Assembly (NCBI GenBank): GCA_914767715.1
Contig: OU612070.1
Location: 5,411,501 to 5,475,500 of the forward strand
Direction of reading: 5' to 3'
Origin: Membranipora membranacea
Taxonomy: Eukaryota > Bryozoa > Gymnolaemata > Cheilostomatida > Membraniporidae
DNA: 64,000 nucleotides
Shown piece by piece: positions 9,741 to 64,000 of this stretch. The position numbers and the translations under genes were made by a program. The first letter of the stretch is position 1; each line of letters begins with the position of its first letter. The notes under the pieces were generated by a model. It saw nothing but the letters and a program-made list of their open reading frames with translations. It had not been told where the DNA came from and did no database searches.

Positions 9741-10205
9741 GTGGGAGCACTAGGGTTGAGAAATGAATTTATCATTTGACAATTATTTACCAATGCAACA
9801 GAGATTAAATAATTATGTTATCTTTATGACAAAACTTGAACACTGATCTAAGGAATTCCTCTTAATTCCCATCAATTACAACTATTTACTAACAGTAACA
9901 GCTGGAGTTCAGCAGTCAGATTAATGAAAATGTTACATAATGTAATTTAATGAGAATTAAAATAAGTAGAGTAGGCTATTAAGGTGGTTAAGTCTGAGGT
10001 CGTGATGAGGAAAGCTTGAGGATTCTATTCTGAGTTTAGAGCATCTACTCTGCTTCGTCTATAAATAAAAATAAGACATCAACAGTAACACAGGGTAATC
10101 GTAAAATGTCAGCGCCAGCGTCATAGTGAGCCGAAGTATAGGCCAATCTGTTGTTTGAATTCTGATATTTAAAAAAAGCGCGCTTACAAAAATGGAAGTC
10201 CATGC

Positions 10206-11990
10206 TGGAAACCGTTGGCACAGCTGGTGACAAAACTGATCCAACAAAACAAGAGACAACATGTGCAACACACACTGAACCAAGCCTGCTCATCTAGATT
10301 GTGGTGGAAAGCGCTAAACAATCTAGAAAATATAGATGACAAGAGACAGCCTGACTTTCACTATATTGATGAAAAATGGCTTACCAATACAGAGGCTGCT
10401 GAAGCACTTAACCAGTACTTCACAACTGTAGGTGGTACAAGATCTGACATAATGAGAGAGAACCCCCAAGTCTACACAGCACTAGAACCTATATCAATAG
10501 GGGAGGTTAAGAAAAAACTCTTTCAGCTAAATACTAAGAAATCCACCAATGCTGATGACTATCCGGCCTGCTAGTCAGTATCCTGATATGTGGAAAATTG
10601 CCGATGTCAAGCCACTACGAAAATGTAAGTGTCCGACAACTCCTAAAGACTATAGACCGATATCGCTCTTATTTCATTTAGGCAAGTTAGCCGAAGATGT
10701 TATATTAGATGGCCTAAAACCAGTCATTACACCGTTGTTGAAAAGTAACCAATACGTATATATCCCTGGCTTGGGCACTACTGATGCACTGATACATATG
10801 ACGCACGAGTGGCTCGCTGGCCTCGACAAACTGTCCACATCACATATTCACATATTGATGAAGGACTTTTCAAAAGCCTTCGACAAGCTCCATCCATCCA
10901 TTCTGCTCTCTAAACTCGAGAACTTTGGGATACAACATTCCCTCATAGACCTGATTGAGAATTTCCTCACCGATAGGCACCAGAAAGTCTCAATGAATGC
11001 CTCTAGTTCCAGTGTCATGCCAATTACAGTCGGCGCGCCTCAGGGGACACGACTGGGACTTGGTTGTGGCTGGCCTTCGTTGATGACCTGCAACCAGCTT
11101 CTGGTGCCACAGTGAAATACGTTGATGATGTGACCACGTACGTTCCAGTCAGAAAGAAAGTCATCCATGACACCGACCCGCTCCAGAGTGCATTAGACTA
11201 CTCAGTGCAATGGTGTGAAGACAACTCCATGTCTCTAAACGCTCCAAAAACTACTGTACTCGACGTTGGGTTGGTATCAAAACCTGACCTAATCTCAGTA
11301 CCTACTATAAATGGCACTGACTTATCGAAGATATCTAGTACCAAACTCCTAGGTGTGGTTATAGATAGTAGACTCACATTTAGTGACCATGTCGACAAAA
11401 TCGTCAACAAATGTAATAGCCTGAATTATTTTTTACAAAGCCTAAAGCGTTTAGATGTTAATACGACTGGTTTACTAACTTTTTATTTTTCTAAGATTCA
11501 TTCTAACATCACATATGCCTCTGCTGCATGGTTTCCTTTAATATCTGGGAATGATAAATCAAAGATCGAGGGTATTGAGAGATGGAGCCTCACAATAATA
11601 TACCCTGAACTGGGCAGTTACCGTCAGAGACTAACCAAATCAAATGTGGTTCCGATTTTAGATTTTCTACAGGTTTTAACTGACAGGCACTTTGACAAAG
11701 TCACCACAAACCCAAGCCATCCGTTGCAACATTTCTTAGTCAGGTGCCAACGTCACAAGGACAAATCTGATATTTTCTATCCACCAATATGTAGAACGGA
11801 GAGATTCAAGAACTCGTTTTTAGTTTCTGGTATGAACAGGCGCCTGTAATGTCTCAACAATATATTTCTTTCTCATGCAGCATGGATTTTATCGTTTTTC
11901 ACCGCCTGATCCAATCATTTTTAATACAACTGTTTTTTCTCCTTTTTTCAAAAGTCTAAATTTTTATTGTACGCACACATTTATATAATG
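10206..11990 (+). mobile_element. Broken non-LTR retrotransposon (LINE) with reverse transcriptase
   Basis: Three adjacent frames together cover the end of the pre-RT region, the reverse transcriptase and the C-terminal tail of a non-LTR element. Visible motifs in order: DYRPISL (about 10650), DFSKAFDKL (about 10863, the first catalytic-Asp block), GAPQGT (about 11032), KYVDDVTTY (about 11115, the YxDD box), and a tail of the TERFKNSF type before a stop at 11847-11849. The endonuclease half is absent (5' truncation). There is a deletion with frame change at about 10565, just before the WKIADVKPL block, and a one-base-type frameshift after GTRLGLG near 11060. It is therefore dead. The tract 11850-11990 may be its 3' UTR. 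Family most like CR1/L2-type elements of invertebrates, from motif style only. Confidence 0.9.
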
Positions 11991-41542: not shown

Positions 41543-43171
41543 CAGTGTCAACTAGCAGAGATTTGTGAGGACATTGTCAGATCATTTGCCATCATGTCAG
41601 TTTCATGAATGAACACTTTGCAGTTGTCTATTCTAACATGACATTACAAGAAGTTTCAAGTGATTCTGCTCAAACGCCTATGATCTCTTCAAAATCATAA
41701 ATAAAGGTTTTAGACTTACCTCATTATTCTTGACTGCTGGGTTGAGCTAAATGGTGGAGGATATCATCTTTTGCGTTTTTTACATCATTTCTTCACTAAA
41801 AATCACGATGTCATCGAATCAAGTATTGGCAGCTTTTGATAGGTATATGGTAGTGTTTTTCCGATTAGTAGTTGACATAACCTCAACGCCATTCTTTTTT
41901 TATCCAATTTTTGTTTGTAGAATGAGATTATTTTTAATTCAAATGCCTATTATGCAAACATGACACATTTTTATTTATGTTTTCGATTATTCAGAGAAAT
42001 TGATAATGAATTCTCTGAAATAAATAGCTTTTTGAAGTTCATGAAGTTTATTTATTGCCATTTTCTTCAAAATCCATCTCAGTTACCAGGTTAATCGCGC
42101 TGAAATAAAGGAAAGAAAATTTCATAATATTCAACAGGGTATTCATAACTCAGCAGGTCATTGTTCATTCCAAACTCAACCAATCTTGTCTACTCTGTCT
42201 TTTCAGTTCATGAATGCTGTAGATATCCCCTCCTTTTGGCTACCTTACCGAACTTGACAGCTATGACCATTGTCAACTTTGACTATGGCACCTTTTTTCA
42301 ACAATTCTTCAAAGCAAAATGCTATTGAGAAGAAGCAGGCAGGTAGGCAGGAATTATTTTCATTGGCATTTTTGGGTAAATGATAAGAGTAATACCCTGG
42401 AAGAAAAATAGTCTAATGCTCTACTTTAAAGTTGTCAGGTATCAGACGGTTCCCCAGACCAGCCCGTCTGTCTGTTCAAACACAGAGCAGAAACCTTTTG
42501 GCAGTCTGAGTTTGTTAGATAGAAAAACGATTTTGGTCTTCCACATTTCAAGGGCATGTCAAATGACACACTTAATTTAGGATTTCATCCTCATTTAGAC
42601 CAGTATCTATTCATGAAATTTGTGTACTTGAGACAAGATCAATATTTTCCAAACCCAATTACAGGAGCTGCGGAGATGAGATGCCAACGTACTAATATTT
42701 GATTAAAACCTGAAATTGAACAACTCGTTTAATATGGTCACAAGATATTTCAGGAAATTTAATTAACTTAAGTGTAAAACACATTGGTGTCCTATTGAGC
42801 AGCATTTTCTTAATCACTAGACACCATCCCATATCAGATATGCCTGCTCAAAGGTAGATATGGGGCTCGGGTAGTAAATCTCATAAAATTTGAGGTGTTA
42901 TCATAACGATAAACTGGATCCAAAACGGAGACATTCTACAGAATAGTAGGAGAACTTCTTATATTATAAATGGTGATCATTTAACTTCTTTATTTTAAAA
43001 AATTCTAAGCAGAAGAGATGCCCAAAGATTGAGGAAATTTCAGCAGAAATGTGTTTGGCTTTCCACAGAATGTTGCCTCGTTGCCATTCATACATACATA
43101 CATACAGTATACTTCTTATTATTCAGAGCTTCATGATCTATATTATGATGATTTATATTTTTCTGTTGCAG
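41543..43171. other. Intergenic
   Basis: AT-rich, with short frames only. The C-type lectin promoter and any 5' non-coding exon should be in its right part: TTTTTCTGTTGCAG precedes the ATG at 43172 and looks like a splice acceptor, so an upstream non-coding exon is likely. Confidence 0.45.
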
Positions 43172-44730
43172 ATGTCTTATGGCTATTGGGTTCTGTGTTT
43201 AGTTGGTTTAGCAGGAGTTTATGGAGTCCCCTATATGGGTAAACCAAATTACAACCAGCTAATTACATTGCCTAAAACCATCTTCAGCGTCAAGAGTCTT
43301 TCAAGATGTTGCGTTCTGTGTGAAACTGAGAGAGACTTCACCTGTGTGGCTGTATCACACTGCAAAATGCTTATGGCCTTCATTCTCTCTGATCTGCCTG
43401 CAAGGAGTGGTGAGGGAGAATCGGACTGCAAAGTATATGAAGTCATAGGTCGGTGTTTGAATTTCAATACAAATAACGATAATGAAATGATTCGGTAGCT
43501 AAAAACTCGAATTTGGTAGTGGTAGTTTAGTGGTTGGAGCTGCTTTCAACATAACTTAATCGTTTTTGCATCCTCACACTAAATAGATTACTGCAAAATT
43601 ATCAAAGCTTTACTATTTGGTCCATGGAGCCATGGCTAGAGCATAGGACTGTCAAATGCTCCTGTGCCCCAACAGTATACAGTCCTTAGACTCATCCAGA
43701 TGACAAAAATTAATATCAAGGATTCTCGCAAGGTATCATAGGCCAGCGAGACGAGATATTTTATCTAAGCTTCACTGTTGTGCACCTGGTCAAATAATGC
43801 GCAGCCAGTACAGTCTGTAACTCTGTTCGCATCTCTTTTGCAGGACGCTTCCCTACTTTGCCATTCCCTTATATTCACAACACCAATGAAGATACTTGCT
43901 ATATTCGAAATTCATTTACTGCCATCGACTGGTTTCAAGCATCTGCGGAATGTAGATCCTATGGTTTCAAACTGGCTGTATTTGAGACAGCTGATGAAGC
44001 AGATTTCATAATCACTCGCTACTCTCATGGAGAGACAGGTGAAATTATATTTATTCCTATAATATTAATGGATGTGTCCCAGTAAGTATAGACACACTAC
44101 TTTGACTTTGATTATTACACGTTAGCTCGGTGCACTTCCTCTGTCCAAGTTTGATAGATATTTTGGCTCTGTATTGGCATATAAGGTATAGAACACATGT
44201 GGCGAAAAAGTGTGGCAAGGAAATTGCAGGTTATTCTATCCCATGTTGTGTATCCTTACCTGTTAACCATCAGAACAGGTGTTTCTTTGTCAGAATGGCT
44301 CCGTTTGAACATAGGCTTGCGAGAGATAAATGGAGTGTGGGAAGACTCTATCAATTTGAATTATGACGGGTTTGTCCTATGATAACCCTATATTGTTAAA
44401 GCTAATGTGTGACACTTATGACAGAGGCACTGAGTGCTGCCTCGAGCGGTTGAAAGGCTTAAAAACTATTCTATGATTTAGCTTCCTTTATGAGCCTAAA
44501 CCAATGTTATTCAAAAAAACCCTGATACATTGTTTACTGTGGACGTACCATCTTAACCGTAATCAGCTTTCCTCCTAAATTACCGCAGGTGGATGGCCGA
44601 GTTGAACCAAGATGGTTATTGTGGGAACTTTTATGTGTGGCAGGGTACATTTGGATTCAATGACCATTCATGCGCTGACAAATTTGGCTACATTTGTGAG
44701 GATGAATATTGTACACTGCTTCAGCCTTAA
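43172..44730 (+). CDS. Secreted PAN-like + C-type lectin domain protein, 4 exons
   Basis: Exons 43172-43448, 43844-44038, 44279-44369 and 44589-44730 join at GT...AG sites with matching phases (1, 1, 2) into 234 codons plus stop. Residues 1-19 (MSYGYWVLCLVGLAGVYG...) form a signal peptide. Residues ~25-92 are Cys-rich (SLSRCCVLCETERDFTCVAV, later DCKVYEV), as in PAN/Apple domains. Residues ~105-228 are a C-type lectin fold: DTCYIRNSF, DWFQASAECRSYGFKLAVFE, LRLNIGLREINGVWED and DHSCADKFGYICED. ELN and FND stand where calcium-binding lectins have EPN and WND, so calcium-dependent sugar binding is possible but not certain. Such proteins are common in invertebrate immunity and adhesion. The start at 43172 sits right after an acceptor-like TTGCAG and gives the signal peptide, unlike the upstream in-frame ATG at 43049. 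Confidence 0.88.
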
Positions 44731-46493: not shown

Positions 46494-47930
46494 GAAGCAT
46501 TTAGACTGTCAAGAAACACAGTAGCATCAGGACCAGCATCCAGTGATTTTGTGTCAAAAGGCCACTGCCAAAAAGCCACTGGCCATAGAGCCACTGGCCA
46601 AAAAGCCACTGGCCATAAGTCCACTGGCCACTGGTCATAAGGCCACTGGTCAAGAGGCCACTACCCAAAAGGCCACTGGCTAAAAAGCCACTGGTCATAA
46701 GGCCACTGGCCAAAAGGCCACTGGTCATAAGGCCACTGGTCACAAGGCCACTACCTATAAGGCCACTGGCCAAAAAGCCATCGTTCATAAGGCCACTGTC
46801 CAAAAAGCCACTGCCCAAAAAGTCACTAGTTCAATTGTGACATGATAGAAGTCTGATATATACTTTCCATTGACATGTTTTTGGGCTCGTAAAAGAAAAT
46901 TCTAGTTCTTGATATGCCATTTATCAATGATTTTTCATTTCTACTCACTGATTCCCATTTTAGTAAACTTAGAAAAGATCCCACCCACCCTTTGCAAATA
47001 ATTATTTTAAATGACTCCACCCAGACATCTTCTCACACATTTTTTCTGTAACGTAACCCCCAATAAATACATCATAATGCATGTTGATGGACAAATCAAA
47101 GTCATCACAAGCAAACAGTCAGCACTTTTAGATCGAAGTAAGGCCGTACTGAGAAGAAACAACGGCGTAGCTTTTTTGATTATTTTTTTCGTAATGATGA
47201 CAATAATGTATTATATCACACAAAATTTTTAATAACATTTTTACCCAATGCACCCTGTGATCCATTTTGATTATCACATGGTTATATCAGATCTGATGCT
47301 TAACAAATCTAAACTCTCTTGTGGACAATACAAGCCTCTACTGAAATCTATCTCTGCATCCATCGAATTTTTTTTATTATTGATGACCAACAAACCCAAC
47401 CGACTCAACTTGATCGCTATTGCTTAAAATTTTGTAGCCTGGTCCTTGACTTTTTGCTGCTGTTCCCAGTAGGATATGCAACTCACTCGTGCTTGGCATG
47501 TGGCATGTCAAAATAAGAAAAGGGATGCCGCTGTCTTTACACAGTGCAGTATTGCTTTGATCTAAAATTGCTGACTGTTTGCTTGTGATGACTACAATTT
47601 GTCCGTCAAGATGCATTATGATGTATTTATTGGAGGTTAAGTTATAGAAGAAATGTGTGACAAGATGTCTGGGTGGAGTCATTTAAAATAATTATTTGCA
47701 AAGGGTGGGTGGGACCTTTTCTAACTTCACTAAAATGGGAATCCATATTTTGGCCAGTGGTTTTATGGCCAGTGGCTTTTTGGCCAGTGGCTTTACGACC
47801 AGTGGCTTATTGGTAGCGGCCTTTTGAGTGTTCACCGCATCCAGTACAGTATCATTAGGATCATCAAAAAGAAGAGAAGCATTTAGACTGTCAAGTAGTC
47901 AAGAAGTACAGACGCATTCGGACCATCACC
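46494..47930. mobile_element. Fold-back structure with minisatellite ends
   Basis: Left arm: a minisatellite of ~15-bp units (GGCCACTGGCCAAAA and variants, about 46555-46830), then sequence through about 47175. Right arm, inverted: about 47512-47740 matching 46950-47175 at roughly 85%, then four or five units of the same minisatellite in complement (47752-47825). The centre (47180-47510) is unique. Both arms read as MTPPRHL.THFF followed by NKYIIMH.DGQI.VITSKQS, in opposite directions. Outside the arms, GAAGCATTTAGACTGTCAAG occurs in direct orientation at 46494 and 47878. It looks like a fold-back (long inverted repeat) transposon; no transposase is seen. Confidence 0.75.
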
Positions 47931-48802: not shown

Positions 48803-48810
48803 TGTGTGTG

Positions 48811-48846
<36 letters not shown>
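48803..48846 (+). repeat. (GT)n microsatellite
   Basis: About 22 GT units with a single C interruption. Confidence 0.95.
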
Positions 48847-48849
48847 GAT

Positions 48850-51800
48850 GATGGCCTTTTGTGGGGAGGTGTGCCTACTTTTTTTAATGAGTACGGGGAG
48901 GTTGCAAATTTTGGGGAGATTTTCTTACTCCCCAAAAATAAATTACCTTTAAACGACTCCTTTTGGGCCAAAAAGGCTCTCATTTCAATTCCAGAAGCCA
49001 CCCCAAAAAATAAAAATTTAGGTTTGTCTGTTCATAAAAAGTCATGAGACACAACTCCACACCATCTGTAGTCTTGTTTGTACACACCTCCTCAGTAATA
49101 ATCAGACATTTGGTATGATAACTCTTTAAACTCTCCCCATAATTCCCTCCTCATAAAATTCATCTTAACTAATCATGAAGCCCAATTTGGAGTTACCCCC
49201 CCCCCAAAGAATTTCCTCAGCAATCCATGGCATGTATGTTTGGGATGAGGTTGTTTCAGATGGTTCGGAAATTAATTGCGTTACCTATACGAAAACCCAC
49301 TTGCTGAGACATTACATTAAAGTAACATTAAGAAGTATAGAACAATAAATTACAATTTATAGACTGCTGTCTCCGCAGTACCACAATCACTTCCATAAAA
49401 TAATAATAATAATAATAATTGTATAATGATTATACTAATAAATATAATCCATAACAATTATATTTATTTGAGCAGGAACGTAATGAATATAGACTATTAT
49501 TTCTAATCATCAATGAAAATAGGTAGTTGCAAGGGGTCTTCCTTTATGTTGTTAAAAGTGATTATGCTTATAGCTTCCGTTCCGAAATATCATTAGAGAG
49601 TACTCCTTAATATGATTCAATTGCATTTTTGTTATATACATGAATGAATTTTTATCGATCTAGGAAATTAAGGAGACTTTCGTCTACATGACATAAATGT
49701 CAAGTTCTAATTTGTATTGTATGCCATAATATACGGTAGGTTGTGAATAAAGATCCTGGAATGATGATTTATTATCGGAAATAAATATTAGAATAAATGT
49801 CAAAAATTTCCTGTTACACCATGTGTTCAAAATGTATTATAATAAAAATGAGAACCTTTCCTGCAAGATAAGTGATTAAAACATATTTAAAACAATTACC
49901 GAGTTGTAATGTCTGTAGTTATTTGAACGGAAACCTGTTTCTTAACAAAACCCAAGATTACTAATTGCATTGCCCTGTGGTAATTTTAGATAGTTCTAGC
50001 CAATTCTGGTTACAAGACTTTATAATCTTAAATTAGAATTAAAAGTATTATTATTATGATTTCAGTAGTATCATTATTATTTTATAGATGATCAAAAAAA
50101 CAGCCTACACATTGTCTCACCTCCAGAGTTTGGTGAGATAGGCCTTTGCTGTAGTTAAATTGAACATTGCTAGTTTTTTCGAAAGTCTTCGTATGATGCA
50201 ATGATAATAATGTAATGTTAATTCACACCTTATACAAGGTAATATAATACAGTACATTTCTATGACTTTATTTGACAAAATCAAAGATCCTAATCACTGT
50301 TTAAATAAACTGCTGCCTCAATTGGTTGTCAATATTAGACAGTTAAGACACCCTCCGAAGTTTGCTGACACATATAGACCGACCCTTCGTTCCAAGTCCC
50401 TTATTATGAAATGTAATACCGGCCAGTTGTATAGAGAAAAAAGTGATTTTGTTTGTATTTAAAACTTTAAAGGCATCGGTTTTCATAACTGTAGTCGATT
50501 GGTTTTTAATAAAGATTTATATATATAAGGGTTAACTTATTAAGCTGTTTACACAGGTTAGTGATTTTGGCTCAATCCGTTGGCATGATAATTTTGACTT
50601 GTGTTCCCTTTCCTTTGAACTATTACATTGATCACCTGGGAGCACAATTCCAACTAAGCAACATTATACATTCGATTTGTCAGTCGTCAATATCGGAAAA
50701 TCTGAGAATGAGATACGCAAAACATAGCGTCTTGCTTGTTAAAGATTTCGAGCAAGTCATTGTCGAAGTTAAAATTATAGCATTTCATTTCAACTCATCT
50801 AGGATATAAATATCATAGAAAAGCTGAAAGCCAAGAAAAATGATGATATTATATCGAGGATATGCATTGTATATTTATTGTTCGATGAAATATAATAAAT
50901 CTCAATTTATATTTTGGTCCGTCTGTGTGTGTGTTTGTCTGGCTATGCAATCGAAAACTGGCAGACTGATCCGGACACCGAAGATGTCGTCAGAACGGTA
51001 TTTTTCTTGAAAGAGAAATGCCATTGTTTCTTTAATTTGGTGCTATGGACATTGGCATAATGGCCCAAGAATGTCCTTTCGTGATGCTTTTCAGTGCCTT
51101 CTATTGATTTATCCCACTAAATAAAACTATGAACTCATTGTGAATTGTGGCTTCATCCGAGAGGTTACTGTTTCAAATTGAAATTTTCTTTCCATATATC
51201 TAGATCTTTCATTCCTTTCCGGAGGAGGCATACACAGATAGTGCAATATTACACTATTGGTTCTCACAGTTCAAACATTCTTTGCACTTTTACCATGTAT
51301 TGAATTCATGATTATTATTGTCATTTACCTAAGGTTTTACTTCCGACTGATCTGTAAAACAAAAATCAAATCATGCAGAGCAACTTCTTTTGACAACGCC
51401 TGGGACGTGAACTGTAATAATATAATATTCTCGAAATATTTGTTATTGGTGACAAGAGCTTGGGTTTTGGTACTCCATGAATAAGGTGTGATGTGCTATA
51501 GAATGACAATAACACACACAGATTTTTCCACAATGCTTCTAAAATATATACATTAAAATATTACATTAAATAAAATTCATACAACAATATGATCATCACA
51601 CACGTAATGATTGATTGTTATATATACTTTTATTTGGCAAAGTATCATCCAAAAAGAATGTTTTTCATATAACACTAAACATAAAAAATTGATTGAGATT
51701 AGATGATAGGCTCTGGGAAATTAAAGACCAGTAAAACCATAGTGTTTTGTGTTAAATCATTTTATAGTGCTGTTATTTGTTGTTTTTGTTTTTTTGTGTT

Positions 51801-52697: not shown

Positions 52698-55695
52698 ATG
52701 CCTTATTTAAAAGTGCGTCGTTATAGCTTGTACTTTGAGACAAAATTATCAGCTATCGTTGAGAATGATGATGTGACTTATGAAAACACTTGTCCCCATC
52801 ACCTCGGTAATAACCTTAGCGTGGCCTGCACCTTATGCCTTGAGTATGTCATAGCTGTAAATGAACCAACTGCTAAAAACTATCATCAATCCGCAGTTAA
52901 AATTCGAGATCTGCATCCTCTGAAACGGACTGAAAGGTATATAGCCCAGCGGAAGACGGGTGTCTGGAAAAGTCTACAGGAACTGAAAGCAAACAAAGAT
53001 TTCTTCGATAACAAGCTTTTCCAGCATTGTAACCAATTGAGTGAGGCAAAGCACCAAAAATTTGGGATAGAAAGAGCACTCAACAGAAAACAACCTACTC
53101 GCTGTTGCAACCTCTTTGCATGCATTGGCTTATTCAAGTGAGTATCGAGTACAGTATTGCAACACAACTATGTTTCAAGTAGAGTAATGATGGAGTAAAG
53201 ATGTGAATTTTGTAGGCCTTCATGGAGAGAGTCTTTAAAAAAACTAAATTGGATTGGCTAAGCATTGGTTTTTGCACATTCATTATAATCTTATGCAGCT
53301 CAAATTAATCAAATAGCTCCATTGCTCCAGCTACGTTCATGACATGACAAGTTCCTCAACTTTGCTGTGTTGGGGTAGTGGCACCATAATAGCTCTATGA
53401 GTGGCACTACACCAATAAAGCATGAAAATACTACAAGCTATCAAAAATAAGTTGACCAATGGTGATTAGGCTTTGACAGTAAGCCCAATTTGATTGGCTG
53501 TTAGCAAGTATCAAATGATACTATAAATACTGTCATGCCAGCGCTCCCCAATCATTGATAGAACACACATGCAGCAGAAAGGTTGTTCCACGATTGACAG
53601 GCTATAAACTGTGCAGGTTTGCTCAATTTCTATTGGATTATATTGACAAGTGGGCACTTAGATCTAGTAGTAACCATTAGTTTAGTGCTAACCTTTTGCC
53701 TAGCCAGCAGCTTCTAGCATTGAATTATAGTTGTACTTGTACTGCAATCAAAAGTCTAGTCTATGAGTACAGTGCAATTCAATGCTTCTTTCAAGTCTAG
53801 TGGAAGTGGGTCGTGGCTGTGTATTGATTTGACAGAAGGCAAAGAGCGAACATTTTATTGTGTCACATGCACACTGCATGCTACTTTGGGTCCCCATTTG
53901 CAGGAATGGCATGGGTCACCAAACTGCAGTCTGCCCATTATTCATGGGTACCTGAGGTTCCTGGCAAAAATATGCATGAGTGCACAGAACATTTTTGCAA
54001 GGACTCTCTGGCACTGCCACAGACTGTGTTGCCAGTGACATTATCATTATACTGTACTGTGCAATCAAGGGGTTAATGATTGGTGATATTGTAAATAAGC
54101 CAAAGCCAGCGATAGGGTGGAGGGGTTTGTCCAAGTTGCATGAAGTACTCCGACTTCTATTTGTGCATAGGACTCGATTGTTTCAATTATTGAAGATAAG
54201 CTCAACATCTTAGCTGTAAAAAAATGATAATGTTGCTACGTTTGTTTGCAGAAAGAGAGATATGGAGACGCGGAGGAGGAAAAGAAAGTCGGTGATACCA
54301 TGTGTAAGTAGTAGCCTCACTTTATTTAAATGTACACACCTACAACTACAACCAACCTTTGCTCACAAATTGCCTATCGGTCATCATATAGAACTAAGAG
54401 CATAAAATCGTCTTGTGTAACACGGACCGCATATGAACAAGTTGATAAAAATTTTTTTCCTCAACTGTTTTTTGGAAAACATGTATTCTATTGTCTGGGT
54501 TTTGAATTGAATTGAATATTTGTGGTCTGTTAACTTAAGCACCTAATTGCGCATTGCTCATGTCCAACCACCCTTCACCGGCCAGCTTGAGGGTGCACCA
54601 TACACCTTAGCGTTGTAAGTCTAATCCATTATCTTACAGGAATATGAAATTGGAGAATTGGTGTGGGCACTGTGGCCAGGTGCTGGTATCTGGTACCAGG
54701 CCACAGTGCTTGAGAAGATGAGTAGGGAATTGGCGGTGCGTTACTTCGACGATGAGCGGAGAACACTGAAATACAGCCAAGTAGAGGTAATAAATGTTTA
54801 TGGTTATTGGGTACGCTGTGCTGTTTGTGTAGGAATGTGTTGGAGAAACTTTGGTTACATAGATGATGAGAGTCTGTCTTGATAAGCAATAGCTTGGATG
54901 AGTAGGGGTGCACGACGGGACAGAAATTGTCAGATTTTTATATTGACGATTTGGTCCACTCATCCATTCTGCAAAATTTTGGTTATGTACCTTGATATAT
55001 AAGTGAACGGCAATTCCTTCAATTGCATTGCTTATAACTTTGAAGCATATGATTATACACTCTATTGGATGCTAGCCATAATGATTCTCTGCACATCGTG
55101 TTTTCTGTTCCTTAATAAATTAATTTAATTGGTAGCCATATTTTGTTCCAGCCAGTGAGTATACTAGGCTTGTTACATGCTCTTCAATGAGTTATTTTTT
55201 TCTCTATTCTACTTTTCTGTTCCAATTGAATTGTTGATTAGGCCTGGGGAGCTAAGAGCTTTTTAGACACCAAACAACATCTCTTGAATCGATACTGATA
55301 CATGTCATTATTCGTATGCGATACCATGTCCTGAAAATTGATGCTTTTGCAATAAGGCCTATACAACGATTTTTACCGGGACAAGATGATATTGATATGA
55401 GATATGAATTATTATGAATATTTCCAAAGTATGTGAACCGATAACTCTGTATTATCTGCCAAACTAAAATATTTTCTTACGATATTTTATCCGCTATATT
55501 GCTCTGATGTGTCAGTCGGCTCTTGTGAAGCAGTATATTGTAACCAACTGGAGATCTAATGAGCAAATTTCTCAGTTCTGTGAATGCTTTTCTAGCCATC
55601 CCTCAACTCGTGTCAACATTGAACTGTTGTAGATGAAGATAACCCATATATCATATCAAGAGCTAACCTTACCAGACTGAGGCCTGATGGAAATG
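52698..55695 (+). CDS. Start of a Tudor-domain-like nuclear protein gene (partial model)
   Basis: Exon 1 is 52698-53137 (phase 2), exon 2 54252-54303, exon 3 54640-54786. These join in one frame: 147 residues, a basic stretch (KRDMETRRRKRKSVIPC, a likely nuclear signal), then 49 residues EYEIGELVWALWPGAGIWYQ...AVRYFDDERR...YSQVE, the strand pattern of a Tudor/Agenet-type barrel with its aromatic residues. Exon 1 has C32, H35, C44 and C47, a possible zinc site; I do not know its family. A further 63-nt exon (55633-55695, EDNPYIISRANLTRLRPDGN) is open only in phase 1-1. Exon 3 ends in phase 0, so an exon between 54787 and 55632 is missing from this model, or another splice form is used. A weak candidate lies at about 55515-55577. 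The gene likely continues into the exon array at 56698. Tudor domains usually bind methylated Lys or Arg in chromatin or RNA-granule proteins. Confidence 0.6.
53450..53570 (+). promoter_or_regulatory. Candidate promoter B, paralogue of promoter A
   Basis: GACCAAT at 53454, TTTGACAGTAAG, an extra GATTGGCTG, TATAAAT at 53522, GTCATGCC and CCCAATCAT...TAGAACACA match promoter A about 985 bp upstream. The next ATG (53763) opens a 91-codon frame of unknown type. Two weak donors in it (before GTACCT at 53948 and GTGACA at 54035) end in phase 2, as exon 1 of the Tudor gene does, so an alternative first exon joining 54252 is possible. Confidence 0.4.
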
Positions 55696-56290: not shown

Positions 56291-59200
56291 GTTCATAAGT
56301 TATTGCATGTCTATTGTTTCCATCCTCTGACATGTTATTTCACAGACCTTTGTGATCAGTCGCTACGGTCTTACGCCGAAAAGATGGAGCCTACATTCGC
56401 CTATGTTTTTGGCCCTCCCATAATTTCCTGACTTTTATTCCTCACTTGGTCGCACCTCCAGTCTAAGCTATCAATTGAACCTCCCCAAAAGTTTGGTGTG
56501 TCCGGGAATATAATTGACAACCTCTCCATACCGGCTCGTTTGGCTCAGTGTGCAGGTTGGACCTCCCCAAATATCTGGTTTTAAACTCATGCGCCATAAC
56601 TCACAACTTTGATTCACCGCTCATTATCTGACAGTTTGAGTGGTTCATAATTATTGCATGTCTATTGTTTCTATCTTCTGACGTGTTATTTTTTCAGACC
56701 TTGGTGGGCAGATGCTGCGGTCTGCCGAACAAAACGTGGTCCTAGCTGGAGCAGCTACGAGAGCCTCACAGGGAGGAGATGTATTTGGTATGTTAATGTT
56801 ATATCATGTTAGTCAGAATTGTCAGTAGGGTTCCTGTCTCAAATCAGGAATCACACAGAGAAGATAAAGCCTACGTTTGCAAAACTCTCATGAAAGGTAC
56901 TTTGGCTCAGTGTGCACTGTGTAGGTTGGACCTCCCCAAAAATCTTGTTTTAAACTCATGCGCCATAACTCGCATTTTTGAATCACCGCTCATTTTCTGA
57001 CAGTTTGAGTGGTTCATAAGATATTGCATGTCTATTGTTTCCATCCTCTGGCGCGTTATTTTACAGATCTTGGTGGTCAGCTGCTGCGGTCTGCCGAACA
57101 AAACAGAGTCCTAGCTGGAGCAGCTACGAGAGCCTCACAGGGAGGAGATGTATTTGGTATGTTAATGTTATATCATGTTAGTCAGAATTGTCAGTAGGGT
57201 TCCTGTCTCAAATCAGGAATCACGCCGAGAAGATGAAGCCTACGTTTGCGACACTATCATAGTCCCTGATTTTCTTCGGTCCCTTTTAGCTCCTTCAGTT
57301 GAGGGTCTCCAGACCCTCCCTAAAAGCCTATGTTTTTGGCCCTCTCATAAATTCCTGACTTTTATTCCTCACTTGGTCGCAGGTCTCCAGTCTAAACTAT
57401 CAATTGAAACTCCCTAAAAGTTTGGTGTGTCTGGGAATATAATTAACAACCTCTCCATACCGGCTCGTCTGGCTCAGTGTGCAGGTTGGACCTCCCCAAA
57501 AATCTTGTTTTAAACTCATGCGCCATAACTCGCATTTTTGAATCACCGCTCATTATCCGACAGTTTGAGTGGTTCACAAGTTATTGCATGTTTATTGTTT
57601 CCATCCTCTGACGCGTTATTTTACAGACCTTGGTGGTCAGCCGTTGCGGTCTGCCGAACAAAACGGAGTCCTTGCTGGAGCAGCTACAAGAGCCTCACAG
57701 GGAGGAGATGTATTTGGTATGTTAATGTTATATCATGTTAGTCAGAATTGTCAGTAGGGTTCCTGTCTCATATCAGGAATCACAGAGAAGATAAAGCCTA
57801 CGTTTGCAACACTCTCATAAAAGGTCCTTTGGCTCAGTGTGCACTGTACAGGTTGGACCTCCCCAAAATCTTGTTTTAAACTCATGCGCCATAACTGGCA
57901 TTTTTGAATCACCGCTCATTATATGACAGTTTGAGTGGTTCATAAGTTATTGCATGTCTATTGTTTCCATCCTCTGACGCGTTATTTTACAGACCTTGGT
58001 GGTCAGCCGTTGCGGTCTGCCGATCAAAACGGAGTCCTAGCTGGAGCAGCTACAAGAGCCTCACAGGGAGGAGATGTAATTGGTATGTTAATGTTATATC
58101 ATGTTAGTCAGAATTGTCAGTAGGGTTCCTGTCTCAAATCAGGAATCACAGAGAAGATAAAGCCTACGTTTGCAACACTCTCATAAAAGGTCCTTTGGCT
58201 CAGTGTGCACTGTACAGGTTGGACCTCCCCAAAAAACTGGTTTCAAACTCATGCGCCATAACTCGCAATTTTGAATCACCGCTCATTATCTGACAGTTTG
58301 AGTGGTTCATAAGTTATTGCATGTCTATTGTTTCCATCCTCTGACGCGTTATTTTACAGACCTTGGTGGTCAGCCGCTGCGGTCTGCCGAACAAAACAGA
58401 GTCCTAGCTGGAGCAGCTACGAGAGCCTCACAGGGAGGAGATGTATTTGGTATGTTAATGTTATATTATGTTAGTCAGAATTGTCAGTAGGGTTCCTGTC
58501 TCAAATCAGGAATCACGCCGAGAAGATGAAGCCTACGTTTGCGACACTCTCATAGTCCCTGATTTTCATCGGTCACTTTTTAGCTCCCTCAGTTTAGCGT
58601 CTCCAGACCCTCCCTAAAAGCCCATGTTTTTGGCCCTCTCATAGATTCCTGACTTTTATTCCTCACTTGGTCGCAGGTCTCCAGTCTAAGCTATCAATTG
58701 AACCTCCCCAAAAGTTTGGTGTGTCTGGGATTATAATTAACAACCTATCCATACCGGCTCGTCTGGCTCAGTGTGCAGGTTGGACCTCCCCAAAATCTTG
58801 TTTTAAACTCATGCGCCATAACTGGCATTTTTGAATCACCGCTCATTATATGACAGTTTGAGTGGTTCATAAGTTATTGCATATCTATTGTTTCCATCCT
58901 CTGACGCGTTATTTTACAGACCTTGGTGGTCAGCCGTTGCGGTCTGCCGAACAAAACAGAGTCCTAGCTGGAGCAGCTACAAGAGCCTCACAGGGAGGAG
59001 ATGTAATTGGTATGTTAATGTTATATCATGTTAGTCAGAATTGTCAGTAGGGTTCCTGTCTCAAATCAGGAATCACAGAGAAGATAAAGCCTACGTTTGC
59101 AACACTCTCATAAAAGGTCCTTTGGCTCAGTGTGCACTGTACAGGTTGGACCTCCCCAAAAAACTGGTTTCAAACTCATGCGCCATAACTCGCAATTTTG

Positions 59201-62200
59201 AATCACCGCTCATTATCTGACAGTTTGAGTGGTTCATAAGTTATTGCATGTCTATTGTTTCCATCCTCTGACGCGTTATTTTACAGACCTTGGTGGTCAG
59301 CCGTTGCGGTCTGCCGAACAAAACAGAGTCCTAGCTGGAGCAGCTACAAGAGCCTCACAGGGAGGAGATGTAATTGGTATGTTAATGTTATATCATGTTA
59401 GTCAGAATTGTCAGTAGGGTTCCTGTCTCAAATCAGGAATCACAGAGAAGATAAAGCCTACGTTTGCAACACTCTCATAAAAGGTCCTTTGGCTCAGTGT
59501 GCACTGTACAGGTTGGACCTCCCCAAAAAACTGGTTTCAAACTCATGCGCCATAACTCGCAATTTTGAATCACCGCTCATTATCTGACAGTTTGAGTGGT
59601 TCATAAGTTATTGCATGTCTATTGTTTCCAACCTCTGACGCGTTATTTTACAGACCTTGGTGGTCAGCCGCTGCGGTCTGCCGAACAAAACAGAGTCCTA
59701 GCTGGAGCAGCTACAAGAGCCTCACAGGGAGGAGATGTATTTGGTATGTTAATGTTATATTATGTTAGTCAGAATTGTCAGTAGGGTTCCTGTCTCAAAT
59801 CAGGAATCACGCCGAGAAGATGAAGCCTACGTTTGCGACACTCTCATAGTCCCTGATTTTCATCGGTCACTTTTTAGCTCCCTCAGTTTAGCGTCTCCAG
59901 ACCCTCCCTAAAAGCCCATGTTTTTGGCCCTCTCATAGATTCCTGACTTTTATTCCTCACTTGGTCGCAGGTCTCCAGTCTAAGCTATCAATTGAACCTC
60001 CCCAAAAGTTTGGTGTGTCTGGGAATATAATTAACAACCTCTCCATACCGGCTCGTTTGGCTCAGTGTGCAGGTTGGACCTCCCCAAAAATCTTGTTTTA
60101 AACTCATGCGCCATAACTCGCATTTTTGAATCACCGCTCATTATCTGACAGTTTGAGTGGTTCATAAGTTATTGCATGTCTATTGTTTCCATCCTCTGAC
60201 GCGTTATTTTACAGACCTTGGTGGTCAGCCGCTGCGGTCTGCCGAACAAAACAGAGTCCTAGCTGGAGCAGCTACAAGAGCCTCACAGGGAGGAGATGTA
60301 TTTGGTATGTTAATGTTATATCATGTTAGTCAGAATTGTCAGTAGGGTTCCTGTCTCAAATCAGGAATCACGCCGAGAAGATGAAGCCTACGCTTGCGAC
60401 ACTCTCATAGTCCCTGATTTTCATCGGTCACTTTTTAGCTCCTACAGTTTAGCGTCTCCAGACCCTCCCTAAAAGCCCATGTTTTTGGCCCTCTCATAGA
60501 TTCCTGACTTTTATTCCTCACTTGGTCGCAGGTCTCCAGTCTAAGCTATCAATTGAACCTCCCCAAAAGTTTGGTGTGTCTGGGATTATAATTAACAACC
60601 TATCCATACCGGCTCGTCTGGCTCAGTGTGCAGGTTGGACCTCCCCAAAATCTTGTTTTAAACTCATGCGGAATAACTGGCATTTTTGAATCACCGCTCA
60701 TTATATGACAGTTTGAGTGGTTCATAAGTTATTGCATGTCTATTGTTTCCATCCTCTGACGCGTTATTTTACAGACCTTGGTGGTCAGCCGTTGCGGTCT
60801 GCCGAACAAAACAGAGTCCTAGCTGGAGCAGCTACAAGAGCCTCACAGGGAGGAGATGTAATTGGTATGTTAATGTTATATCATGTTAGTCAGAATTGTC
60901 AGTAGGGTTCCTGTCTCAAATCAGGAATCACAGAGAAGATAAAGCCTACGTTTGCAACACTCTCATAAAAGGTCCTTTGGCTCAGTGTGCACTGTACAGG
61001 TTGGACCTCCCCAAAAAACTGGTTTCAAACTCATGCGCCATAACTCGCAATTTTGAATCACCGCTCATTATCTGACAGTTTGAGTGGTTCATAAGTTATT
61101 GCATGTCTATTGTTTCCATCCTCTGACGCGTTATTTTACAGACCTTGGTGGTCAGCCGTTGCGGTCTGCCGAACAAAACGGAGTCCTAGCTGGAGCAGCT
61201 ACAAGAGCCTCACAGGGAGGAGATGTAATTGGTATGTTAATGTTATATCATGTTAGTCAGAATTGTCAGTAGGGTTCCTGTCTCAAATCAGGAATCACAG
61301 AGAAGATAAAGCCTACGTTTGCAACACTCTCATAAAAGGTCCTTTGGCTCAGTGTGCACTGTACAGGTTGGACCTCCCCAAAAAACTGGTTTCAAACTCA
61401 TGCGCCATAACTCGCAATTTTGAATCACCGCTCATTATCTGACAGTTTGAGTGGTTCATAAGTTATTGCATGTCTATTGTTTCCAACCTCTGACGCGTTA
61501 TTTTACAGACCTTGGTGGTCAGCCGCTGCGGTCTGCCGAACAAAACAGAGTCCTAGCTGGAGCAGCTACAAGAGCCTCACAGGGAGGAGATGTATTTCGT
61601 ATGTTAATGTTATATTATGTTAGTCAGAATTGTCAGTAGGGTTCCTGTCTCAAATCAGGAATCACGCCGAGAAGATGAAGCCTACGTTTGCGACACTCTC
61701 ATAGTCCCTGATTTTCATCGGTCACTTTTTAGCTCCCTCAGTTTAGCGTCTCCAGACCCTCCCTAAAAGCCCATGTTTTTGGCCCTCTCATAGATTCCTG
61801 ACTTTTATTCCTCACTTGGTCGCAGGTCTCCAGTCTAAGCTATCAATTGAACCTCCCCAAAAGTTTGGTGTGTCTGGGAATATAATTAACAACCTCTCCA
61901 TACCGGCTCGTTTGGCTCAGTGTGCAGGTTGGACCTCCCCAAAAATCTTGTTTTAAACTCATGCGCCATAACTCGCATTTTTGAATCACCGCTCATTATC
62001 TGACAGTTTGAGTGGTTCATAAGTTATTGCATGTCTATTGTTTCCATCCTCTGACGCGTTATTTTACAGACCTTGGTGGTCAGCCGCTGCGGTCTGCCGA
62101 ACAAAACAGAGTCCTAGCTGGAGCAGCTACAAGAGCCTCACAGGGAGGAGATGTATTTGGTATGTTAATGTTATATCATGTTAGTCAGAATTGTCAGTAG

Positions 62201-64000
62201 GGTTCCTGTCTCAAATCAGGAATCACGCCGAGAAGATGAAGCCTACGCTTGCGACACTCTCATAGTCCCTGATTTTCATCGGTCACTTTTTAGCTCCTAC
62301 AGTTTAGCGTCTCCAGACCCTCCCTAAGAGCCCATGTTTTTGGCCCTCTCATAGATTCCTGACTTTTATTCCTCACTTGGTCGCAGGTCTCCAGTCTAAG
62401 CTATCAATTGAACCTCCCCAAAAGTTTGGTGTGTCTGGGATTATAATTAACAACCTATCCATACCGGCTCGTCTGGCTCAGTGTGCAGGTTGGACCTCCC
62501 CAAAATCTTGTTTTAAACTCATGCGCCATAACTGGCATTTTTGAATCACCGCTCATTATATGACAGTTTGAGTGGTTCATAAGTTATTGCATGTCTATTG
62601 TTTCCATCCTCTGACGCGTTATTTTACAGACCTTGGTGGTCAGCCGTTGCGGTCTGCCGAACAAAACAGAGTCCTAGCTGGAGCAGCTACAAGAGCCTCA
62701 CAGGGAGGAGATGTAATTGGTATGTTAATGTTATATCATGTTAGTCAGAATTGTCAGTAGGGTTCCTGTCTCAAATCAGGAATCACAGAGAAGATAAAGC
62801 CTACGTTTGCAACACTCTCATAAAAGGTCCTTTGGCTCAGTGTGCACTGTACAGGTTGGACCTCCCCAAAAAACTGGTTTCAAACTCATGCGCCATAACT
62901 CGCAATTTTGAATCACCGCTCATTATCTGACAGTTTGAGTGGTTCATAAGTTATTGCATGTCTATTGTTTCCATCCTCTGACGCGTTATTTTACAGACCT
63001 TGGTGGTCAGCCGTTGCGGTCTGCCGAACAAAACAGAGTCCTAGCTGGAGCAGCTACAAGAGCCTCACAGGGAGGAGATGTAATTGGTATGTTAATGTTA
63101 TATCATGTTAGTCAGAATTGTCAGTAGGGTTCCTGTCTCAAATCAGGAATCACAGAGAAGATAAAGCCTACGTTTGCAACACTCTCATAAAAGGTCCTTT
63201 GGCTCAGTGTGCACTGTACAGGTTGGACCTCCCCAAAAAACTGGTTTCAAACTCATGCGCCATAACTCGCAATTTTGAATCACCGCTCATTATCTGACAG
63301 TTTGAGTGGTTCATAAGTTATTGCATGTCTATTGTTTCTAACCTCTGACGCGTTATTTTACAGACCTTGGTGGTCAGCCGCTGCGGTCTGCCGAACAAAA
63401 CAGAGTCCTAGCTGGAGCAGCTACAAGAGCCTCACAGGGAGGAGATGTATTTGGTATGTTAATGTTATATTATGTTAGTCAGAATTGTCAGTAGGGTTCC
63501 TGTCTCAAATCAGGAATCACGCCGAGAAGATGAAGCCTACGTTTGCGACACTCTCATAGTCCCTGATTTTCATCGGTCACTTTTTAGCTCCCTCAGTTTA
63601 GCGTCTCCAGACCCTCCCTAAAAGCCCATGTTTTTGGCCCTCTCATAGATTCCTGACTTTTATTCCTCACTTGGTCGCAGGTCTCCAGTCTAAGCTATCA
63701 ATTGAACCTCCCCAAAAGTTTGGTGTGTCTGGGAATATAATTAACAACCTCTCCATACCGGCTCGTTTGGCTCAGTGTGCAGGTTGGACCTCCCCAAAAA
63801 TCTTGTTTTAAACTCATGCGCCATAACTCGCATTTTTGAATCACCGCTCATTATCTGACAGTTTGAGTGGTTCATAAGTTATTGCATGTCTATTGTTTCC
63901 ATCCTCTGACGCGTTATTTTACAGACCTTGGTGGTCAGCCGCTGCGGTCTGCCGAACAAAACAGAGTCCTAGCTGGAGCAGCTACAAGAGCCTCACAGGG
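56290..64000 (+). repeat. Tandem array of ~367-bp and ~560-bp units with 1,855-bp higher-order repeat
   Basis: Spacing between the conserved AG|ACCTTGGTGG sites: 369, 560, 366, 367, 560, 367, 367, 561, 560, 367, 367, 561, 560, 367, 367, 561. The long unit is the short one plus ~194 bp (from CATAGTCCCTGATTTTCATC to about CCATACCGGCTCGT). From 58360 the order long-short-short-long repeats with a period of exactly 1,855 bp: 58360-60214, 60215-62069, 62070-63924, then on past the window. The three copies differ at only a handful of sites. The left edge is more diverged: at 56346 a partial unit is fused by deletion to the later part of a long unit. This gradient is expected of an array homogenised by unequal exchange. 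Confidence 0.95.
56698..64000 (+). CDS. Array of 17 visible 90-nt phase 1-1 exons encoding 30-residue repeats (partial)
   Basis: Exons start at 56698, 57067, 57627, 57993, 58360, 58920, 59287, 59654, 60215, 60775, 61142, 61509, 62070, 62630, 62997, 63364 and 63925 (cut by the window); each is 90 nt. Every copy is open, preceded by TTATTTTACAG (TTATTTTTTCAG in the first) and followed by GTATGTTAATG. Each starts with two bases and ends with one base of a split codon, so joined copies read D-LGGQPLRSAEQN...RASQGGDVF/I-D again and again. Copies 1 and 2 differ most (LGGQMLRSAEQNVV and LGGQLLRSAEQNRV). The repeat is rich in Ala, Gly, Gln and Arg, without Cys or a known motif; its middle (RSAEQNRVLAGAATRAS) looks helical. 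No function can be assigned. The 63-nt exon at 55633 has the same phase and could lead into it, giving ...RPDGN-D-LGGQ. Exon 12 ends in C in place of G. Expression is unproven: a satellite carrying a frozen exon-like segment is the alternative. Confidence 0.65.

What the first reader, a model, noticed from the sequence alone, without database searches (positions are those of the whole stretch)
56698..64000. Tandem array of at least 17 near-identical, phase-symmetric 30-codon exons
All visible units keep a 90-nt open segment between good splice sites, in phase 1-1, while the intron parts differ by a ~194-bp block. Any number of exons can be spliced in without breaking frame, so exon count (by copy-number change or by splicing) would set the length of a 30-residue repeat domain. 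The repeat matches no family I know. Seen: the exons, frames and splice sites. Inferred: that they are transcribed and joined.
Basis: partly seen in the sequence, partly recalled or inferred. Interest (0 to 1): 0.92.

Follow-up and report, generated by a model that had tools for sequence, protein, structure and literature searches.

The report
Expandable exon array in giant transposon
A row of near-identical mini-exons sits inside what looks like the single gene of a very large jumping DNA element that inserts into TG repeats, and a related element in the same genome carries a different row of mini-exons at the same place, so these elements seem to have gained length-adjustable protein segments twice.

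Summary
The array is real and longer than seen: 25 phase 1-1 exons on this contig (17 start in the window), 5 and 2 at two other places, and no others found in the 339-Mb animal genome. It lies inside a 35-kb unit present, wholly or partly, at three sites. A related subfamily has four further copies (one read in full, 28 kb; three by their ends and by searches). All ends read (6 left, 7 right) abut TG- or TATG-rich repeats with unrelated flanks. The unit looks like one large spliced gene: Tudor-type domain, exon array, F-box-like exons, zinc fingers, tyrosine recombinase, SANT-like end. The related subfamily (recombinase 57% identical) carries a different 29-codon, phase 1-1 array at the same gene position, 9, 8, 18 and 8 copies. 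Introns of both arrays carry a GGGG-rich motif of the element's left end. Best reading: a giant recombinase transposon whose recombinase gene has twice grown a frame-safe, length-variable repeat domain by unequal exchange. Transcription and joining are unproven; selection within the subfamily is weak. Boldest open reading: the recombinase's own sites help resize its gene.

The parts
48847..48960 (+). Left end of the transposon unit next to (TG)n at 48803-48846; inverted pair TTTGGGGAG-N9-CTCCCCAAA at 48910-48936
   Evidence: Unit boundary by alignment with the C8 copy; the inverted pair occurs 5 times in 339 Mb, each time at a left end of these elements
52698..53137 (+). Probable N-terminal coding exon (MPYLKVRRYSL...), ending at a GTGAGT; start and end not proven
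   Evidence: Collinear protein matches to subfamily 2, 51-61% identity in five pieces; splice end seen
54252..54303 (+). Basic (RRRKRKS) exon
   Evidence: Collinear short protein match to subfamily 2, 79% over 14 aa
54640..54786 (+). Tudor-type domain exon; to join the next exon in frame a weaker donor a few codons further on is needed
   Evidence: 64% identical to the subfamily-2 exon, which passes Pfam cut-offs for SGF29_Tudor and LBR_tudor; this copy lies just below both cut-offs
55633..55695 (+). Small coding exon after the Tudor exon (DEDNPYIISRANLTRLRPDGN); inferred
   Evidence: Open phase 1-1 exon between splice sites
56698..64000 (+). Tandem array: exons 1-17 of 25 copies of a phase 1-1 exon encoding DLGGQPLRSAEQNxVLAGAATRASQGGDVF/I; exon 17 runs past the window end; the array runs on to 70645

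Best explanation
The array is the repeat-encoding middle of a single large spliced gene carried by a giant tyrosine-recombinase DNA transposon (24-36 kb in the full copies read) that inserts into TG-type microsatellites. The protein order is: N-terminal domain, basic stretch, Tudor-type domain, 30-residue repeats, F-box-like segments, acidic segments, zinc-finger-like clusters, tyrosine recombinase, SANT-like end. Because each repeat exon starts and ends in phase 1, unequal crossing-over or gene conversion can add or remove exons, or the F-box block lying between repeats, without breaking the frame. The repeats would act as an adjustable spacer or multivalent segment between a chromatin-reading and a DNA-cutting part. 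Shown: the array, its copy-number differences, the dispersed unit with microsatellite ends, the recombinase homology, and a second, unrelated-looking array at the same place in a related subfamily. Inferred: splicing, protein function, mobility today, the mechanism of exon gain and loss, and the role of the repeats.
For: Unit at C6:5460303-5495781 matches C8:10746323-10769901 at 98.7% (left) and 98.8% (right of the array), and part of it matches C5:24820237-24833332 at about 97%, with unrelated sequence outside. Ends read sit in TG- or TATG-rich repeats: 2 left and 3 right of subfamily 1, 4 left and 4 right of subfamily 2. The recombinase exons of this copy, joined at splice sites chosen by eye, are open (580 aa, no stop) and carry an R...R...H...Y pattern; a homologue modelled by AlphaFold (pLDDT 83) has XerA, IntI, XerD and a Cre derivative as its 7 best PDB matches, probability 0.77-1.00. 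Subfamily 2 is collinear in N-terminal, Tudor, F-box, recombinase and SANT-like exons; left ends align beyond the TG repeat, 0 of 300 shuffles as good; recombinase codon-position differences 0.33/0.24/0.60 over 313 codons show long-term constraint. Subfamily 2 has its own 87-nt phase 1-1 exon array: 9 units with identical splice sites in the copy read, and 44 matches genome-wide, 9/8/18/8 plus one stray, none with stops. The left-end inverted pair occurs 5 times in the genome, at 5 of the 6 left ends read and nowhere else; control 0.
Against: No RNA evidence. Array exons are no more conserved than adjacent intron sequence (4.2% vs 3.3% and 4.6% mean pairwise difference, 31 of 32 exons, the one at 66693 dropped); pN/pS is 0.62 on 13 and 8 changes, and with 0.86 stop changes expected, seeing none is not significant. 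Between subfamily-1 copies pN/pS is 0.7-1.0; the C5 copy has a stop and the C8 copy a frame break in recombinase exons. No Pfam model hits the recombinase at a useful score, a profile search of PDB sequences finds no recombinase, and in the fold search no match has E below 0.001, with TM-scores of 0.23-0.29 (query) and 0.33-0.44 (target) and rmsd of 15-21 A for those seven. The Tudor exon does not join the next exon in frame at its best-looking donor. SANT-like and zinc-finger names are by eye; Pfam does not support them. Target-site duplication cannot be read inside a microsatellite.
Confidence: 0.76

Rival explanations
1. The array is a neutral intronic tandem repeat (minisatellite) that happens to contain an old exon; it is skipped or the gene is dead, and the copies matter only as DNA.
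For: Exons evolve like their introns; weak selection within the subfamily; two of three subfamily-1 copies have broken recombinase exons.
Against: 32 of 32 exons keep acceptor, donor and phase, the one length change being 3 nt; a second array of different sequence in the related subfamily also has an in-phase exon with splice sites in 9 of 9 units read, at the same gene position.
Confidence: 0.2
2. The units are segmental duplications of a host gene of recombinase origin, not a moving element.
For: Recombinase-like proteins of this family occur in several animals, with names given for scallop, crinoid, bass and beetle, and domesticated recombinase genes are known (Crypton paper PMC3212892, passages seen).
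Against: Ends at TG/TATG-rich repeats with unrelated flanks in every case read; conserved left end and inverted pair across subfamilies with 57% identical recombinases; subfamily-2 copies on four contigs with ends differing by 0-5 bases per 200-240 where compared.
Confidence: 0.09
3. The exons are alternatives for mutually exclusive splicing, generating protein diversity.
For: Tandem similar exons in one phase are the anatomy of such clusters (recalled knowledge).
Against: The 30-residue sequences are almost identical, so choosing one gives little diversity; joining two keeps the frame, so nothing enforces exclusion.
Confidence: 0.04
4. The unit is an endogenous large DNA virus using a recombinase.
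For: Endogenous nimaviruses insert into simple repeats or rDNA, and many use tyrosine recombinases with a zinc-binding domain (PMC10871703, abstract and passages).
Against: Ten further ORFs of 90 aa or more from the unit gave no Pfam match above cut-off (several other ORFs were not tested); the one gene model spans most of the unit.
Confidence: 0.03

Closest known systems
Crypton transposons (tyrosine-recombinase DNA transposons)
   Same: DNA element whose only recognisable enzyme is a tyrosine recombinase
   Different: 24-36 kb, many introns, Tudor-type and F-box-like parts, TG-microsatellite target; no Crypton-type Pfam domain at E<=1 (which Pfam family that is, is recalled)
Starship elements of fungi
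   Same: Giant element with a tyrosine recombinase gene (search listings)
   Different: No cargo gene recognised among the ORFs tested; the recombinase gene itself fills most of the element; no captain-type Pfam domain at E<=1
Endogenous nimaviruses with telomere- or rDNA-specific tyrosine recombinases (PMC10871703)
   Same: Repeat-specific insertion, zinc-binding tyrosine recombinase, multi-exon recombinase genes predicted in some
   Different: Large viral genomes with many genes; here a unit with one recognised gene and a TG/TATG target
Phase-symmetric repeat-domain genes grown by exon duplication
   Same: Class 1-1 exons that can be multiplied in frame (recalled)
   Different: Here inside a transposon-like unit, twice, with different repeat sequences at one gene position

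Membership tests
Tyrosine recombinase | Recombinase fold | tested here: met
   Model of homologue P0008, not of the window's own protein: the 7 best PDB matches are all tyrosine recombinases, probability 0.77-1.00, but best E 1.4e-3, TM (query) at most 0.29, rmsd 15-21 A
Tyrosine recombinase | Catalytic R, R, H and Y | tested here: met
   RRAGE, KFRKHLATL, LGHDIKVHREFYR in the window copy's gene and in aligned homologues; T/S stands where H is usual before the second R; motif assignment recalled
Crypton | Crypton-type YR domain similarity | tested here: not met
   No such Pfam family at E<=1
Crypton | Short direct repeats at both ends, no long terminal repeats | tested here: inconclusive
   Ends lie in TG repeats, so short repeats cannot be told from target
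Starship | Captain-type recombinase domain plus cargo genes | tested here: not met
   No captain Pfam family at E<=1; no cargo gene recognised among 10 further ORFs tested
Endogenous nimavirus | Viral structural and replication genes | tested here: not met
   None by Pfam among the ORFs tested; not every ORF was tested
DIRS/Ngaro retroelements | Reverse transcriptase in the element | tested here: not met
   None by Pfam among the ORFs tested; not every ORF was tested
Mobile element | Observed transposition or empty/filled alleles | not testable with these tools
   One genome only
Phase-symmetric exon array | Exons joined in mRNA | not testable with these tools
   No RNA data

The most novel reading that the evidence does not exclude
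The element edits its own gene: each array unit carries a copy of the element's subterminal motif (TTTGGGGAG), which may be the recombinase's binding site, so the recombinase promotes gain and loss of frame-safe exons in the very gene that encodes it, and this has arisen twice with different exons.
Probability: 0.11. Interest if true: 0.92.

Novelty: new variant of a known kind. Interest (0 to 1): 0.75.

Why it matters
A selfish element that twice evolved a length-adjustable repeat domain in its own recombinase would be a natural experiment on why such enzymes acquire expandable modules, and on how frame-safe exon arrays are born. The subfamily-2 copies with 8, 8, 9 and 18 exons allow a direct test of whether exon number changes activity. 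It also points to a giant, intron-rich, microsatellite-targeting recombinase transposon in an animal; nine searches of an open-access library showed no description of it in their listings (listings capped at 10-20 papers, and 69 and 91 returned none).

Tried and rejected
Host satellite: rejected as sole explanation, because the repeat exon was found only inside these elements. Homology between the two repeat exons: none seen by eye; no formal test made. Strong purifying selection on the array exons: not found. Element ends as long inverted repeats: subfamily 1 shows only a short left-right inverted match, 16 of 18 bp, equalled by 1 of 300 shuffles; subfamily 2 shows none (243 of 300), and the right ends of the two subfamilies do not match beyond chance (73 of 300). 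Third array: 19 kb upstream of the C3:27770447 recombinase fragment held none; its match to subfamily 2 begins only about 0.2 kb upstream, so it is a cut-off fragment. The weak C3:27575018 match was not explained. Species name: the mitochondrial cox1 fragment is open with AGA read as Ser (codes 5, 9, 14; also open under 4 and 13) on a 14,741-bp contig, but no species was fixed. Tudor and F-box exons could not be counted across the genome (tool busy). The three protein-database searches went to two recombinase queries and cox1, so none was made with the repeat itself, and whether the exon array exists in other species was not tested.

Full report
What was checked. The window is contig C6:5411501-5475500 of a 339-Mb, 18-contig genome, one contig being a 14.7-kb mitochondrial sequence. 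The exons are as described. 17 start in the window; 25 lie on C6, 5 on C8 and 2 on C5; all 32 follow CAG, and 31 are 90 nt and precede GTATG. The exon at 66693 is 3 nt shorter and in frame. A genome-wide protein search gave 32 matches, all at these places and none with stops; the tool calls such counts lower bounds.

Surroundings. The C6 locus is one copy of a dispersed unit. C6:5460303-5495781 aligns with C8:10746323-10769901 over 7.7 kb on the left (98.7%) and 14.5 kb on the right (98.8%), and partly with C5 (about 97%). Similarity stops in TG-rich repeats, and the flanks are unrelated. A search with the left end found two copies, C6 and C8; the C5 copy starts inside the array.

The gene. 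Downstream of the array, exons on the same strand encode acidic segments, two zinc-finger-like clusters (by eye) and a tyrosine recombinase. Upstream lie a probable N-terminal exon, a basic exon and a Tudor-type exon. After array exon 23 come about 3 kb with F-box-like exons, then two more repeats. The seven exons measured between the Tudor exon and the recombinase, one array exon among them, have lengths divisible by three and read in phase 1-1; the F-box-region exons were judged by eye only. The Tudor exon joins the next exon in frame only with a weaker donor. A SANT-like segment near the right end is conserved with subfamily 2 but has no Pfam hit to that family. Homologues include proteins named for scallop, bass, crinoid and beetle. 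The AlphaFold model of homologue P0008 (22-sequence alignment, pLDDT 83, pTM 0.59) has XerA, IntI, XerD and a Cre derivative as its seven best PDB matches; none has E below 0.001 and the TM-scores are low.

Second subfamily. A search with the first recombinase exon gave 43 matches; four, on C8, C2, C3 and C5, have 56-57% identity to the query and almost equal scores. The C8 copy was read over 40 kb and is collinear with the window's element in N-terminal exon, Tudor, F-box, recombinase and SANT-like segment, with similar left ends. Codon-position differences of 0.33, 0.24 and 0.60 over 313 codons show constraint. Its Tudor exon passes two Pfam cut-offs; one F-box-like stretch reaches the cut-off and the other does not.

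Second array. Between its Tudor and F-box exons this copy has nine 87-nt phase 1-1 exons encoding TLSETHEHGLSDVHQSNSPPVETSQLHDG at about 597-bp spacing, each with the same acceptor and donor. Genome-wide, 44 matches fall as 9, 8, 18 and 8 in the four copies and 1 about 6 kb from another related recombinase exon on C2; none has a stop. The copies' ends differ by 0-5 bases per 200-240, in 9 of 12 comparisons; the other three, with the C2 left end, failed because the script's anchor missed it. So exon number goes from 8 to 18 among copies at least 97.9% identical at their compared ends. In subfamily 1, two successive 1855-bp blocks of four units differ at 5 sites (0.27%); a third block could not be compared without gaps. 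C6 and C8 differ by about 0.5% in substitutions downstream of the array (summed), so some array growth may be younger than the split of these copies, but the margin is small. The C8 array has C6-like first and last exon types but only five exons and no F-box block, as expected if exchange between repeats removed it, or if C6 gained it.

Ends and motif. All ends read, 6 left and 7 right, abut TG- or TATG-rich repeats. Left ends of both subfamilies contain TTTGGGGAG-N9-CTCCCCAAA. In the whole genome this exact pattern occurs five times, at five of the six left ends read; the backward control occurs 0 times; the subfamily-2 C5 copy has a variant. The 9-mer TTTGGGGAG occurs twice in 203 kb of background, but 35 times in the C6 array region and twice in the left end, and nowhere else in that unit; in subfamily 2 it occurs 8 times in the array, 3 times just before it, 4 times within 300 bp of the left end and once elsewhere. 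The longer TTTTGGGGAG is absent from the subfamily-2 array. Two 8-mers and their reverse complements (that is, this one 9-mer) are shared by both left ends and both array units; shuffled units reach this number in 1 of 2000 trials and share at least one in 12 of 2000; among real pieces, 4 of 276 host, 3 of 70 and 3 of 67 non-array element pieces hold one. The motif had been noticed before the test, and the copies within an array are not independent, so this is suggestive. It lies on opposite strands in the two arrays, so an RNA splicing enhancer is a poor explanation.

Results against. Array exons diverge like their flanks (31 exons, one dropped); pN/pS is 0.62 on 21 changes. Subfamily-1 copies show little current selection, and two of three have broken recombinase exons. 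No expression data exist here.

Judgement. The array is best read as a frame-safe, length-variable domain in the recombinase gene of a giant microsatellite-targeting transposon. Two different arrays at one gene position suggest that something there, perhaps the shared motif, favours array birth. As a class the element is a new variant of tyrosine-recombinase transposons. Literature: passages of PMC10871703 (abstract included), PMC3212892 and PMC6431247 were seen; other papers only as search listings.

Noticed in passing
window 46553-46827 and 47748-47813: Tandem repeats of a GGCCACTGGCCAAAA-type unit just outside the transposon's left end.
   Followed up: no
window 10173-11849: Overlapping ORFs that look like a LINE-type reverse transcriptase, apparently frame-disrupted (naming by eye).
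   Followed up: no
window 42977-44085: ORFs resembling PAN and C-type lectin domains (naming by eye).
   Followed up: no
C3:27575018-27575107: Weak 74% match to 92 bp of the array unit, about 9 kb from a degenerate recombinase fragment at C3:27564960; not explained.
   Followed up: partly
C9:14251623 and seven similar places on C1, C3, C5, C7, C8, C10 and C11: Eight distantly related recombinase-like matches (26-28% identity) that all sit in 263-aa open frames, possibly another recent transposon family.
   Followed up: no
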